A stretch of 64,000 nt of DNA from a virus, in the IMG/VR virus record IMGVR_UViG_3300009506_000009, positions 1 to 64,000 of that record; one strand, written 5' to 3'. Shown one piece after another: positions 26,978-51,575 of the stretch. Position 1 is the first letter of the stretch. The number at the start of each line of letters is the position of its first letter. Under the pieces are notes generated by a model that ran no database searches, was not told the DNA's origin, and was given only the letters and a program-made list of their open reading frames with translations. A program made the translations under genes and the position numbers.

Positions 26978-27096
26978 GCCCCTGTAGCTCAGAGTCAGAG
27001 CATTTCCAGCTAGTATGTGCATAATGCACGGGCTGATCTCCGTGAGTAGTGCATGAAAACTGGAGAAGGTCGTAGGTTAGAATCCTACCAGGGGTA
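26978..27096 (+). tRNA. tRNA-like gene with ~50-nt insertion in the anticodon arm
   Basis: Acceptor GCCCCTG/CAGGGGT, D arm GCTC/GAGC, T stem GTAGG/CCTAC and the anticodon stem base (TTTCCAG 27003-27009 with CTGGAGA 27060-27066) are all intact. The 7-nt loop is replaced by 50 nt (27010-27059) that can fold (CACGG/CCGTG, ATGCAC/GTGCAT). Joining its ends CT and GAAAA would give a Phe(GAA) loop on a lengthened stem, so an intron is possible. The T loop TTAGAAT lacks C56, which favours decay or a non-decoding role. Confidence 0.55.
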
Positions 27097-31487: not shown

Positions 31488-31572
31488 ATTGTATATTTTT
31501 CCAGTAATTAACCCATAAGACACAAGGTTTATATATAGAAGCCTATGGGTGAGATAGCGGAAAAATTCCCCC

Positions 31573-31601
31573 TTGACAACTAGCTTGACCTGTAGTAGAA
31601 T
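31573..31601 (+). promoter_or_regulatory. sigma70-type promoter for tRNA-Tyr/tmRNA
   Basis: TTGACA, 17-bp spacer, TAGAAT, about 100 nt before tRNA-Tyr. Confidence 0.75.
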
Positions 31602-31699: not shown

Positions 31700-31780
31700 G
31701 GTGCGTCTGGTCCTGGGAGAGATCAAGTGGCTGTAACCCACCCGCCAACGGCTGAGTAGGTTCGAATCCTACACGCACCA
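31700..31780 (+). tRNA. tRNA-Tyr(GTA)
   Basis: Acceptor GGTGCGT/ACGCACC, loop CTGTAAC, long variable arm (GCC-AAC-GGC) as expected for bacterial type-II Tyr. Confidence 0.9.
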
Positions 31781-31784
31781 CTAT

Positions 31785-32069
31785 GGGCCTGCCCTGGCTT
31801 CGATTGTTGTCAGTATGCTTCGGTTTCTATCATAAAACATAATTGCAAACGAACCAACGTTAGCAGACGCTCTGTTCAGCGGCGTCCAATCCCTAGCTGA
31901 ACAACTGTTTTCTGCGCCCGTAGCAGTTGCGGCCTAATAGCAACTCTTGGTGGAGTCACCCTAGCCGTTATCCCCAGGTGACAAACTCTACTCAGTGAGT
32001 GACTGAGAATGATAGTAACAAACCAACAGTGAAATCAGCAAGACATCGGTTCAATTCCGATCAGGTCCA
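31785..32069 (+). ncRNA. ssrA: transfer-messenger RNA (tmRNA)
   Basis: The tRNA-like ends pair (GGGCCTG at 31785 with CAGGTCC at 32062-32068) with G3-U70, the alanine identity pair, and a T arm ATCGG-TTCAATT-CCGAT near the 3' end. The 5' part has CTGGCTTCGA, as in other tmRNAs. A resume codon GCA at 31845 opens a 30-codon tag, ANEPTLADAL at its start and APVAVAA at its end, then TAA TAG. The hydrophobic VAA end is a protease degron. It would release stalled ribosomes and tag their products. 285 nt, on the short side; encoded 5 nt after tRNA-Tyr. Confidence 0.9.
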
Positions 32070-32323
32070 CTTCGCCACGCAGGGGCGACTAAAAATACCT
32101 GACACATGACCTTGGTATGTCAGAAACTACCCATTATTAGATGGCTTTAAAAAGGGCTGGCCTGCTAAACCAGTTACCGAGGAATAAAGTGGAGTAGCTA
32201 ACCATATAATACTTGGTCGAAATCTAACAAAGGCGGCGAGTCGCCGTCCACTGGATGCAAACGCAGTAACGGATAGGACAGTGCTTTGTAAAGATGCACC
32301 CCGGATCATGTAACCGGGATAAT
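32070..32323 (+). ncRNA. structured spacer after tmRNA
   Basis: No gene. Hairpins CGCC/GGCG at once after tmRNA, CTGACA/TGTCAG, GGCG-GCGAGT-CGCC and CCCGG/CCGGG. Unknown RNA. Confidence 0.4.
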
Positions 32324-35436: not shown

Positions 35437-35787
35437 ATGGCGAAAGATCGAAACATCAGAAAGAAGACCCGCTTCAACCCATACAAGAGTTGGGAAGGCG
35501 ACTGTGAGAGCTTCTCAGATGCTAGTCGTCGCCAGTTTGCCGAAGAACAAGTGGACCCCCCACGCAATAGACATATTAGAAAAAAGAAGAAACTGATCTT
35601 CATTATGGCTACAGCCTATGGTACCCCAAAGTGGTACATGCCAAAGGGTGCCTGGAGAATAGGCAAGTATGAGAAGATGCGGGATGCTGAAAAGGCTCTG
35701 GAGACCATGCAGAATAAACGCTGGCCTGGAGACTTCTACGAATTGAGAATCGAAGACAGGAGACCTGAGAGTGAAAAGACTGCGTAG
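35437..35787 (+). CDS. hypothetical basic protein
   Basis: 116 residues, RBS TTAGGAGGAA. Basic N-terminal half (RNIRKKTRF...NRHIRKKKK) and a C-terminal alpha/beta segment (KYEKMRDAEKALETMQNKRW). Overlaps the start of the lipoprotein gene. Unknown. Confidence 0.7.
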   Translation: MAKDRNIRKKTRFNPYKSWEGDCESFSDASRRQFAEEQVDPPRNRHIRKKKKLIFIMATAYGTPKWYMPKGAWRIGKYEKMRDAEKALETMQNKRWPGDFYELRIEDRRPESEKTA

Positions 35788-36820
35788 CTTTTTAATTGGG
35801 ATTGTAATCGGGCTGATCGTTGTGTATCTACTTTCATCCTGTAAGCCAGAAGAAGAGATCAAATCTATCCCACAGACTCTACCAAGGCAGTACCAAGTAA
35901 TCCTTCCATTAGCGATGAAGAATTATAGAGTTCCTACTATCGTTGCTGTTGAAGCAGAGACTCCTGCTGATCCCAATCAATACCTATGGATGGGGGATAT
36001 TCTAAAAGTGTCATGTGGTGCTGAGAATACTGAACGGTATGGTATGTCGTACTGTACTGACAAGGTTAAAGGGTTCCCGGATGGAACACACATCTGGTTA
36101 CAGTTAAAGCAGGGACACTCCTGGTGGGTTACTCCAGCATGTAGACCTATACCAGAGAAGTATTGGGATGCCTGGGTTGAGCAGTTTGCTCTTGTTGTGA
36201 TCCAGGAAATGGAAGACATTCTTGGTCCAGATGCAGTTTGGTATCTGTCGTATACAAATGAACCAGATACTTCTTTTGCAGGTTTGGGTGAGTGGCTCGG
36301 GTGTTGGGGTGAGACCTTTGAAGAAGGTCAATATTATGCTCAGTTCGCAAATCATGTAATCCCACAAATCCGGGCACGATATCCACATATTAGGCATGTT
36401 GTAGGTGAGTTTATTAATTATGGGTTGCCTTTTGCAGAGGGTGTAGCATCAACAATTACAGAGGCTGATGTTATCTCTTTTCATAGTTATAGTGGATGTG
36501 GCTGGAGCACAACAGGACTTGTTGAGCGTAAGATAGCTTGGTTCACAGAAAACTTTCCTGGTTTTCCCTTAGCTTTATCTGAGACAGGAATGACCTATGA
36601 TACCCCATCGGATGAATGTGATCTTCAGCAAGCAGAGTATGTAAAGTTTGTAACCAGCGATATTGATGTAGAAGCAGTGGGTTTATATACAGGCTGGCCT
36701 AACGGTTGGAAAAATACAGACTTGACAAGGTTTGATAAAGATGGTAAAATTGAACTTAAGCCGTCATATTTTGTTTACGAGTCACTACAGATATCCAAGG
36801 GATGGGAACCTTGGAGATAA
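35771..36820 (+). CDS. secreted lipoprotein, clan GH-A-like glycoside hydrolase
   Basis: 349 residues from a GTG at 35771. Signal peptide with membrane stretch LIGIVIGLIVVYL and lipobox LSSC, giving a lipid-anchored Cys at residue 24. The catalytic domain looks like a TIM-barrel glycosidase: YLSYTNEPD with the acid/base Glu (E164) after beta-4 and LALSETGMT with the nucleophile Glu (E271) after beta-7; FHSYSGCGW is typical of the beta-6 region. It would act outside the membrane of the infected cell on polysaccharide. An unusual phage-borne function. Confidence 0.75.
   Translation: MKRLRSFLIGIVIGLIVVYLLSSCKPEEEIKSIPQTLPRQYQVILPLAMKNYRVPTIVAVEAETPADPNQYLWMGDILKVSCGAENTERYGMSYCTDKVKGFPDGTHIWLQLKQGHSWWVTPACRPIPEKYWDAWVEQFALVVIQEMEDILGPDAVWYLSYTNEPDTSFAGLGEWLGCWGETFEEGQYYAQFANHVIPQIRARYPHIRHVVGEFINYGLPFAEGVASTITEADVISFHSYSGCGWSTTGLVERKIAWFTENFPGFPLALSETGMTYDTPSDECDLQQAEYVKFVTSDIDVEAVGLYTGWPNGWKNTDLTRFDKDGKIELKPSYFVYESLQISKGWEPWR
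36722..36750 (+). promoter_or_regulatory. internal sigma70-type promoter
   Basis: TTGACA, 17-bp spacer, TAAAAT inside the 3' end of the lipoprotein gene, about 75 nt before tRNA-Gln(CTG). Confidence 0.55.
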
Positions 36821-49516: not shown

Positions 49517-50707
49517 ATGGCAGACCTTTATATCCCAGGCAACCCATCAATAGATGAGGCAATAGAATACTTCGGCGCAGAAGCAATGAAGCAGGTCCAG
49601 ACCCTGGTCTCTCGACCAGAGTTTACTCATGTGCGCCTAATGCGGGATGGTCACCTTGGCTATCAGTCTATGCCAATCGGTGGGGTAACTGTATCACATC
49701 GATATATTGCTCCTGGTGGGGCAGGGTTTGATATTGGGTGTGGTAATTGGGCTGGTAAAACAGAAGTTCATATGTCTTACTTAACCAGAGGTGACCTGTA
49801 TGAATTGGGGATCGAAATCTCTAAGAAGATTGCTATTGGTCTTGGTCAGGCTTATGGTACGTTCGCTGACCACCCACTGCTTCCAGACATCATCCATGCA
49901 GTTAAGGATGCTCATATCAATATCACACCTGAAGTTATCATTAACCAGTTTGGTTCCGTTGGTGCAGGCAACCACTATATTGACCTGATGACAGACTCCG
50001 AAGGATATATCTGGATCGCTCTTCACTATGGCTCCCGTAAGCTTGGGCATACCATTGCTGATCACTACCTTAAGATGCTTGGAGCTAATGACGGTATGTT
50101 CTCGATGCCTGTATTCCTGGATACATGGTCGATGGTTGGTCAAGAGTACCTACGCCTTATGGAGCTTGCAGGTGAGTATGCTAGAGTATCACGCCGCTTG
50201 GTAGGTACAAAGATTGCTACGCAAATCCTTCAAGACACTGTGGTTGATGTAGTAGAGAACCACCACAACTACATCTGGCAGGAAGTACATCATGGTGAAG
50301 CTGTCTATGTTACCCGCAAGGGTGCAACTCCCGTTCACCCAGGTGTACGTGCTTTCATCGGTGGCTCCATGGGTACGGACTCAATTATTGTGGAAGCAAT
50401 TGACTGTGACGAAAACAACAAGACATTCCGCTCGGCTATGCATGGTGCTGGACGTACTATCAGCCGTGGTATGGCAAAGGGTAAGTTTACACGCAGTGGA
50501 GAAATGAAGCGTGCTCCACTAGTAACAAAGGAAATGATGAACGGCTGGATGAATACGGAAGGGATCATTCGGATTGGTGGTGGGGTTGACGAGTCACCAC
50601 ACTGCTACCGTAACTTGATCGAAGATGTGCTTCCTTATTACCCGCACCTTAAGGTTAAGGAAATCCTATCTCCAGTCGTAGTTATCATGAACCCTGATGA
50701 GCATTAA
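49517..50707 (+). CDS. rtcB: RtcB RNA ligase
   Basis: 396 residues, close to bacterial RtcB length, ATG behind GGAGG. Metal and guanylation motifs are in order: GFDIGCGN (D72, C75), FGSVGAGNHYIDL (H153), HYGSRKLGH (H170), GSMGTDSIIVE, and MHGAGRTISRGMAKG with the guanylated His, ending in GGVDESPHCYRNL. RtcB joins 2',3'-cyclic phosphate or 3'-phosphate RNA ends to 5'-OH ends, repairing cleaved tRNAs or splicing tRNA exons. It heads a two-promoter block with the RlaP-like gene. Confidence 0.96.
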   Translation: MADLYIPGNPSIDEAIEYFGAEAMKQVQTLVSRPEFTHVRLMRDGHLGYQSMPIGGVTVSHRYIAPGGAGFDIGCGNWAGKTEVHMSYLTRGDLYELGIEISKKIAIGLGQAYGTFADHPLLPDIIHAVKDAHINITPEVIINQFGSVGAGNHYIDLMTDSEGYIWIALHYGSRKLGHTIADHYLKMLGANDGMFSMPVFLDTWSMVGQEYLRLMELAGEYARVSRRLVGTKIATQILQDTVVDVVENHHNYIWQEVHHGEAVYVTRKGATPVHPGVRAFIGGSMGTDSIIVEAIDCDENNKTFRSAMHGAGRTISRGMAKGKFTRSGEMKRAPLVTKEMMNGWMNTEGIIRIGGGVDESPHCYRNLIEDVLPYYPHLKVKEILSPVVVIMNPDEH

Positions 50708-50712
50708 TGAGT

Positions 50713-50735
50713 GGCCCACTTCGGTGGGCCTTTTT
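50713..50735 (+). terminator. Rho-independent terminator after rtcB
   Basis: GGCCCAC-TTCG-GTGGGCC followed by TTTTT. Confidence 0.92.
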
Positions 50736-50736
50736 C

Positions 50737-50765
50737 TTGACTTTTACTAGGGAGTATGGTACAAT
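50737..50765 (+). promoter_or_regulatory. sigma70-type promoter, near-leaderless RlaP gene
   Basis: TTGACT, 17-bp spacer, TACAAT; 9 nt to the ATG at 50775. Confidence 0.75.
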
Positions 50766-50774
50766 ACCTGCACT

Positions 50775-51575
50775 ATGAAAAACGAACTCAGCCTACTAGA
50801 ATATATGTACAACCTGGACCTGCTAGGGTTCAGGGGTTCCCTGCCACCTGTGGAAAATAAAATCTTCGAAGTGTATGCCGGGTCCTATGGTCGTAAGATC
50901 GCTGGTCTTATGTCAGATGTAGATATCGTGGCTGTGTATGTACCAGACTATGATGACCTTTACGGGCACCTTGTACCTGGGTTTGGTACAAAGACAGAAC
51001 GCTTCAAAGCCTTTCACACACCAGACTATATGGTGAAGCTCAATGCTGGTATGAAGAAAGTAGATGTAACAGCGTTTGATGTGGTACACTTCTTCAACTT
51101 ACTACTCAAAGGTAGCCCAAATCATGTGGAATACCTATTCCTTGAGCCAGGACGTAAGCTCACAGAAGCTGGAAGTATCCTGCTGGCTAATCGTGATCTG
51201 TTTGTTACGCAAACACTGGTTACCAAGCTGATCGCCGCAGGCAAACACATCATGCTTAGAGAAAGCCCACACTCCATCAAAGACTACATGCTGGCTACCC
51301 GCTTCTTTATCTATGCGGTACACGCCTACAGCCATGGAACACTGATGCCTGAACTTACGGTTAAGCTAATGCGAGAGATTAGGGATACAAATGATTGGGA
51401 TTACGCTCAGATGTGGGCAAAATCTTTCTATGAGCATGTCACTCAACTAGTAGAGACAAAAGATACTTTTATCCCGAAAGAAACCAGTGAAGAGCTTGCT
51501 AATGAAGTCCTGCTACAGGTCCTACACGCTCATTGGAACTCACGAGCAAAGGAGAACTATGACTGCTACTCTTGA
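50775..51575 (+). CDS. RlaP-like nucleotidyltransferase (RNA-repair associated)
   Basis: 266 residues. Pol-beta type core YAGSYGRKIAGLMSDVDIVAVYV provides G-S and D-x-D (D48, D50), with a third acidic residue in KKVDVTAFDV; the C-terminal half is helical. This is the layout of RlaP (DUF2310/PF10127-type) proteins, which accompany RNA ligases. Next to rtcB, it likely prepares or protects RNA ends during repair. Overlaps recA by 17 bases. Confidence 0.85.
   Translation: MKNELSLLEYMYNLDLLGFRGSLPPVENKIFEVYAGSYGRKIAGLMSDVDIVAVYVPDYDDLYGHLVPGFGTKTERFKAFHTPDYMVKLNAGMKKVDVTAFDVVHFFNLLLKGSPNHVEYLFLEPGRKLTEAGSILLANRDLFVTQTLVTKLIAAGKHIMLRESPHSIKDYMLATRFFIYAVHAYSHGTLMPELTVKLMREIRDTNDWDYAQMWAKSFYEHVTQLVETKDTFIPKETSEELANEVLLQVLHAHWNSRAKENYDCYS

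What the first reader, a model, noticed from the sequence alone, without database searches (positions are those of the whole stretch)
31785..32069. Phage tmRNA with an unusually long tag
Acceptor pairing with the G3-U70 alanine pair, T arm and 5' consensus identify an ssrA RNA. The tag frame starts at GCA (31845) and runs 30 codons, ending PVAVAA then TAA TAG; most bacterial tags are nearer 10-15 residues. A phage tmRNA could rescue ribosomes when host mRNA is degraded, or tag proteins for a specific protease.
Basis: partly seen in the sequence, partly recalled or inferred. Interest (0 to 1): 0.85.

Follow-up and report, generated by a model that had tools for sequence, protein, structure and literature searches.

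The report
Phage tmRNA with long repeat tag
An uncultured phage carries its own working-looking copy of the bacterial ribosome-rescue RNA (tmRNA), whose tag is about three times longer than usual; related phages keep the length and often a repeated tag motif but not the usual protein-destruction signal at its end, which suggests that phages have re-purposed what happens to rescued proteins.

Summary
Window 31785-32069 is a one-piece tmRNA gene (ARAGORN; Rfam RF00023, E 9e-16), 3 bases downstream of a tRNA-Tyr gene, in an array of 36 tRNA genes of a 98.9-kb phage contig. Its tag is ANEPTLADALFSGVQSLAEQLFSAPVAVAA (30 codons, TAA TAG). A homologous tmRNA in a sister phage keeps the 30 codons (25/30 residues, third-position-biased changes, dN/dS about 0.2-0.4) and every pair of the tRNA-like domain and connector helix (26 pairs, 10 with two-sided changes). 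Five more phages of the same capsid family carry tmRNAs, all with 23-29-residue tags. A survey of about 100 Chloroflexota tags gave 9-18 residues.

Three features of the family stand out. Five of the seven have no room for pseudoknot 1. Four share an (S/T)LA(D/E)xLF motif, twice in three of them. Only two of seven end in Ala-Ala, against 101 of 103 in the survey.

No SmpB or ClpP was found; the phage encodes a CCA-adding enzyme, RtcB and an RlaP-like protein. Best reading: a functional phage tmRNA that uses host SmpB, with a lineage-specific tag whose fate may not be standard C-terminal degradation. Long tags also occur in unrelated permuted viral tmRNAs, so length alone is not unique. New variant of a known kind; the host is unproven.

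The parts
31785..32069 (+). tmRNA (ssrA) gene, one-piece form, 285 nt to the discriminator base; CCA not encoded
   Evidence: ARAGORN; Rfam RF00023; structure conserved with compensatory changes in G001
31785..31791 (+). 5' strand of the acceptor stem GGGCCTG (G3 at 31787)
   Evidence: two of seven pairs changed on both sides in G001, G3-U70 unchanged
32062..32069 (+). 3' strand of the acceptor stem CAGGTCC (U70 at 32066) and discriminator A
32045..32061 (+). T arm ATCGG-TTCAATT-CCGAT
31804..31807 (+). helix 2 proximal, 5' strand; partner 32038-32041
31822..31831 (+). helix 2 distal, 5' strand; partners 32020-32024 and 32011-32015; 13 nt then lead to the tag, leaving no room for pseudoknot 1
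   Evidence: 5 two-sided changes in 10 pairs
31840..31844 (+). frame-setting sequence TAATT; T at -5 and A at -4 correspond to U85 and A86 of E. coli tmRNA
   Evidence: sequence; role from PMC2481249; A at -4 in all seven family members
31845..31934 (+). tag reading frame, 30 codons: ANEPTLADALFSGVQSLAEQLFSAPVAVAA
31857..31877 (+). first copy of the (S/T)LA(D/E)xLF motif: TLADALF (tag residues 5-11)
31890..31910 (+). second copy of the motif: SLAEQLF (tag residues 16-22)
31935..31940 (+). double stop TAA TAG
   Evidence: sequence
31991..32007 (+). hairpin CTCAG-TGAGTGA-CTGAG downstream of the tag, compensatory change in G001
31700..31781 (+). tRNA-Tyr, 3 bases upstream of the tmRNA; same order and spacing in G001, probable co-transcript
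31573..31601 (+). promoter-like site TTGACA-17-TAGAAT, 11 of 12 consensus bases, conserved at the same place in G001

Best explanation
This is a functional, reduced, one-piece phage tmRNA. It is probably transcribed from a conserved promoter with tRNA-Tyr, trimmed like a tRNA, given its CCA end (the phage encodes a CCA-adding enzyme), charged with alanine by host AlaRS through G3-U70, and carried by host SmpB and EF-Tu to ribosomes stalled on broken mRNA. Translation resumes at GCA 31845 and a 30-residue phage tag is added before release at TAA TAG. It belongs to a translation kit (36 tRNAs, CCA enzyme, RtcB, RlaP-like protein) that keeps protein synthesis running while RNA is cut during infection. 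The family keeps the tag long, and the window's subgroup keeps a repeated (S/T)LA(D/E)xLF motif, while the C-terminal Ala-Ala degron is not kept. So tagged proteins probably go to a route that reads the internal motif, or are degraded less by the route that reads the C-terminus. Shown: tmRNA structure, conservation of the frame, long tags across the family, motif repeats. Inferred: charging, SmpB use, rescue, fate of tagged proteins.
For: tmRNA models; 26 pairs all kept, 10 with two-sided changes; slid controls at most 1; 30 codons kept; 10 of 16 changes at third positions; dN 0.10/dS 0.58, or 0.14/0.32 by the second method; P 0.005; seven tmRNAs in one capsid family, tags 23-30; motif twice in window, G001 and L521; length and Ala-Ala end differ from Chloroflexota, P about 4e-6 each; no SmpB; RtcB, RlaP, CCA-adding-type enzyme; conserved promoter; (A at -4 in all seven).
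Against: No expression or tagging data. The Rfam score is barely above the cut-off, and G001's is just below it. Pseudoknot 1 and much of the downstream pseudoknot chain are missing. The window's own tag still ends AVAA, which is compatible with ordinary ClpXP-type degradation, as in Chloroflexota tags ending APVALAA. The host is unknown, so its tag could not be compared directly.
Confidence: 0.72

Rival explanations
1. An ordinary degradation tag that happens to be long: the phage tmRNA works exactly like the host's, the C-terminal AVAA sends tagged proteins to ClpXP or a similar protease, and the extra residues are a neutral or spacer extension.
For: The window and G001 tags end APVAVAA; Chloroflexota tags often end APVALAA and one ends APVAVAA. 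E. coli work shows that the tag template after the first codons can be changed without loss of tagging (PMC4236655).
Against: The extension is under codon-level constraint and carries a repeated motif kept in distant relatives, while five of the seven family tags do not end in Ala-Ala.
Confidence: 0.35
2. A decoy or inhibitor of host tmRNA: the tRNA-like domain titrates SmpB or AlaRS, as proposed for the tag-less phage DS6A RNA.
For: Reduced backbone of about 196 nt and no phage SmpB. A precedent exists in DS6A (PMC4131195 and PMC11915505).
Against: A decoy needs no tag, yet frame, start context, double stop and tag residues are conserved.
Confidence: 0.08
3. The tag has lost its degron and protects tagged proteins, or sends them to a place or partner through the repeated helix-forming motif.
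For: C-termini of relatives are VVTA, LVTV, VSAY, VLAS and PQVV. AlphaFold predicts helix 6-23 in the window tag and two helices matching the two repeats in G001.
Against: The window and G001 still end AVAA. The amphipathic signal seen in the window is not kept in L521 or L523. Models of 30-residue peptides are weak evidence.
Confidence: 0.25
4. A chance tmRNA-like fold or a decayed relic picked up from a host.
For: Low covariance-model scores and missing pseudoknots.
Against: Compensatory changes in acceptor, T arm and helix 2, and purifying selection on the frame.
Confidence: 0.01

Closest known systems
Standard (one-piece) bacterial tmRNA, Rfam RF00023
   Same: Acceptor stem with G3-U70, T arm, helix 2, resume codon GCA with U/A at -5/-4, tag, stop codons
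   Different: No room for pseudoknot 1, shortened pseudoknot chain (backbone about 196 nt against a median of 330 in Chloroflexota), tag 30 residues against a usual 10
Cluster C mycobacteriophage tmRNAs (Bxz1 and relatives; PMC4131195, PMC3029335)
   Same: Phage-encoded one-piece tmRNA together with about 30 tRNA genes
   Different: No DNA similarity found in the phage collection. Their tags could not be fetched here, so no tag comparison was made
Two-piece (permuted) tmRNAs of marine and aquatic phages (Melnitz and others, PMC9004378)
   Same: Phage tmRNA without phage SmpB; the survey of viral contigs finds tags up to 31 residues among permuted forms
   Different: Gene order is permuted there; the tag sequences are unrelated and most end LAA
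Tag-less tmRNA-like RNA of mycobacteriophage DS6A
   Same: Reduced phage RNA with a tmRNA tRNA-like domain
   Different: DS6A has no tag frame; here the frame is long and conserved

Membership tests
tmRNA (RF00023) | tRNA-like domain with alanine identity pair G3-U70 and T arm | tested here: met
   G3-U70 kept while neighbouring pairs change in G001
tmRNA (RF00023) | Score above the family's curated cut-off | tested here: met
   47.7 bits against 47; sister G001 45.6, below it; relatives L519-L523 52-135 bits
tmRNA (RF00023) | Tag reading frame with resume codon, frame-setting A upstream and in-frame stop, conserved as protein | tested here: met
tmRNA (RF00023) | Helix 2 joining the tRNA-like domain to the mRNA-like part | tested here: met
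   14 pairs kept in window and G001, 6 with two-sided changes
tmRNA (RF00023) | Pseudoknot 1 before the tag and pseudoknots 2-4 after it | tested here: not met
   PK1: only 13 nt between helix 2 and tag, no significant H-type pseudoknot in window or G001, while L519 and L520 have one (2 of 60 shuffles as good). PK2-4: model columns deleted, one hairpin supported. PK1 is typical rather than essential: replacing it by single strand kept tagging in E. coli (PMC4236655)
tmRNA (RF00023) | Alanine charging, SmpB binding, tagging of stalled proteins | not testable with these tools
   needs biochemistry
ClpXP-type ssrA degron | C-terminal LAA or similar Ala-Ala end | tested here: inconclusive
   window and G001 end AVAA; five of seven family tags do not end Ala-Ala
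Permuted two-piece tmRNA | 3' half of the tRNA-like domain encoded upstream of the 5' half | tested here: not met
   ARAGORN and Rfam both read the standard order
Tag-less decoy tmRNA (DS6A type) | No tag frame | tested here: not met
   30-codon frame, conserved

The most novel reading that the evidence does not exclude
A phage family has rebuilt the tmRNA tag: it drops pseudoknot 1 and, in most members, the C-terminal Ala-Ala degron, and (in the window's subgroup) carries tandem (S/T)LA(D/E)xLF helical repeats that are read by a different host or phage factor, so that trans-translation in infected cells rescues ribosomes but sends the rescued proteins to a fate other than standard Clp degradation.
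Probability: 0.3. Interest if true: 0.82.

Novelty: new variant of a known kind. Interest (0 to 1): 0.62.

Why it matters
Why phages carry tmRNA is an open question, and the tag is the one part of the molecule that tells what happens to rescued proteins. A phage family that keeps a long tag, in its window subgroup with repeats, but not the usual C-terminal degron gives a direct test: swap or trim the tag and see whether ribosome rescue alone or the tag itself matters for infection. It also gives natural tmRNAs without pseudoknot 1, beside sisters that have it, for structural work. In addition, it shows that search programs miss such forms (ARAGORN missed two of the seven).

Tried and rejected
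DNA similarity of the locus to known phages or plasmids: none. Terminase relatives in bacterial genomes: none. Host from capsid-protein hits in 400 Chloroflexota genomes: only weak hits, best 36.9 bits over part of the protein, not taken as host evidence. Host from tag C-terminus: APVAVAA occurs mostly in Alphaproteobacteria (permuted genes) and in one Chloroflexi MAG; suggestive of Chloroflexota together with an 'ILPLAMKNYRV' motif in ORF 35771-36820, a resemblance from memory only; not proven. Tandem duplication of the tag DNA: codon copies are only 13-15 of 33 identical, so the repeat is seen at protein level only. Amphipathic-helix hypothesis: significant in window and G001 but not in L521 or L523, so not claimed for the family. 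Two further DNA-pattern hits for the downstream helix (L475, L476) hold no tmRNA. The other two loci matching the tag pattern (L019, L021) hold no tmRNA. Bxz1 could not be fetched under two accessions. The Chloroflexota survey is limited to readable high-scoring tmRNAs; a few ARAGORN misreads were removed by eye.

Full report
WHAT IS THERE. ARAGORN finds a tmRNA at 31785-32070 with the tag ANEPTLADALFSGVQSLAEQLFSAPVAVAA and two stops. Rfam RF00023 agrees at 47.7 bits against a cut-off of 47, E 9e-16. The window is part of a 98,893-base virus record with major head, portal, terminase and endolysin genes. It carries 36 tRNA genes covering all 20 amino acids, an RtcB ligase and an RlaP-family protein, and, further on, a polyA-polymerase-head protein with an HD domain, as in CCA-adding enzymes. 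The tRNAs and the tmRNA do not encode CCA. No SmpB or ClpP was found in the record or in the relatives searched.

IS IT MORE THAN CHANCE. A sister phage (G001, 51-kb contig, terminase 68% and major head protein 81% identical) has a homologous tmRNA, scored by Rfam at 45.6 bits and missed by ARAGORN. It also lies 3 bases after tRNA-Tyr. On the two-sequence alignment, all 26 pairs of acceptor stem, T arm and helix 2 form in both, ten of them through changes on both sides; sliding the partners by 1-3 columns leaves at most one such pair. The structure and the alignment come from the same two sequences, so the slid controls matter more than the shuffles. The tag frame has 30 codons in both: 16 base changes fall 4/2/10 on codon positions, 25 of 30 residues are kept, dN 0.10 against dS 0.58 (0.14 against 0.32 by a second method), and only 0.5% of random placements of the same changes alter so few residues. 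A promoter-like site with 11 of 12 consensus bases is kept at the same place in both.

THE FAMILY. A search with the major head protein gave 42 related viral contigs. Of 30 records searched, five more carry a tmRNA over the Rfam cut-off. All five tags are long: AKDAFTFEEVFGSQPSLAEALFSKAVVTA (L523, 29), AKEESLADVLFAGPSLADALFSQHVLVTV (L521, 29, missed by ARAGORN and read by eye), AKPVSFTWQDILALPVAGEPALVSAY (L522, 26), GKNFANLLMINDPERHLVPQQAELVLAS (L520, 28) and ANTFKNFVGSYTPARHLATPQVV (L519, 23). The A at -4, which is critical in E. coli (A86; PMC2481249), is present in all seven. Several large records of the family show no tmRNA, so it is not universal.

HOW UNUSUAL. Of 97,179 curated tmRNAs the most frequent tag length is 10 (PMC11915505). 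Among 102 readable Chloroflexota tags lengths were 9-18. The seven family tags are all longer. However, a survey of viral contigs by sequence pattern found 42 of 160 permuted tmRNAs with tags of 20 or more, up to 31.

THREE FEATURES BEYOND LENGTH. (1) In five of seven the tag starts at base 59-62 and only about 13 nt lie between helix 2 and the tag; a 29-column block present in L519 and L520 is missing. A search for H-type pseudoknots finds a good one before the tag in L519 and L520 (2 of 60 shuffles as good) but nothing notable in the window, G001, L522 or L523, and a weak one in L521. Pseudoknot 1 can be replaced by single strand in E. coli without loss of tagging (PMC4236655), so this does not argue against function. 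(2) The motif (S/T)LA(D/E)xLF occurs twice in the window, G001 and L521 and once in L523. It was defined on the window, so L521 is the test: one or more copies arise in 0.02% of shuffles of the L521 tag and two copies in none of 200,000. Codons of the copies differ mainly at third positions. (3) Only the window and G001 end in Ala-Ala, against 101 of 103 Chloroflexota tags (Fisher P 3e-6; relatives are not independent, so the P value is indicative).

MECHANISM. By established tmRNA biology, G3-U70 and discriminator A would be charged by host AlaRS, host SmpB and EF-Tu would deliver the RNA to stalled ribosomes, and translation would resume at GCA 31845. Structure, frame and its conservation are shown here; charging, delivery and tagging are inferred. 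The setting (36 tRNAs, CCA enzyme, RNA repair proteins) suggests a role in keeping translation going when RNA is cut during infection. The fate of tagged proteins is the open point. For the window, the AVAA end is compatible with Clp-type degradation; for the family, conservation sits in length and, in four members, in the internal motif, not in the end. AlphaFold on single sequences predicts helix 6-23 for the window tag (mean pLDDT 84.5) and two helices, 3-12 and 14-23, for G001 (76.2), which match the two motif copies. This is weak evidence for such short peptides.

HOST. Not established. Tags ending APVA(V/L)AA occur in Chloroflexota and in Alphaproteobacteria.

VERDICT. Real and conserved: a new variant of a known kind, and of moderate to high interest because the tag's evolution makes a test of phage tmRNA function possible.

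Noticed in passing
window 26978-27096 (+); L009:18219-18337: A tRNA-shaped RNA of 119 nt (RF00005, 48 bits; missed by ARAGORN) with a 54-nt insertion in the anticodon arm that folds into a long hairpin (z -3.6). G001 has a 119-nt counterpart (53.9 bits) with very different sequence in the insert. It may be an intron-bearing tRNA, since the phage encodes RtcB, or a tRNA-like RNA without an anticodon.
   Followed up: partly
L005:3642-4066 (-), IMGVR_UViG_3300048930_000242: A 153-kb viral contig carries a permuted (two-piece) tmRNA gene with tag ANDEYFAPVAMAA, resembling alphaproteobacterial tags.
   Followed up: no
viral loci, e.g. L335, L373, L333, L348: Several unrelated families of viral permuted tmRNAs carry 20-31-residue tags with conserved cores such as ANADTFDFSAMSFTGNTV... 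and AKTSDTAANNIVAFSR...; long tags seem to recur in viral tmRNAs.
   Followed up: partly
window 31508-31533: A non-coding stretch TTAACCCATAAGACACAAGGTTTATA upstream of the tRNA-Tyr/tmRNA promoter is identical in G001 and occurs once in the window; possibly a regulatory element.
   Followed up: partly
window 49517-51575: RtcB ligase followed by an RlaP-family protein (Pfam RlaP barely above its cut-off): a possible RNA-repair pair in a tRNA-rich phage.
   Followed up: no
window 35771-36820 (+): Putative lipoprotein with an ILPLAMKNYRV motif that recalls secreted proteins of Chloroflexota (from memory); a weak host hint. No Pfam match.
   Followed up: no
L519 1..88 and L509 12..244: Some related phages carry tRNA genes with odd anticodon loops (ARAGORN 'tRNA-???', e.g. 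tctg, agtg).
   Followed up: no
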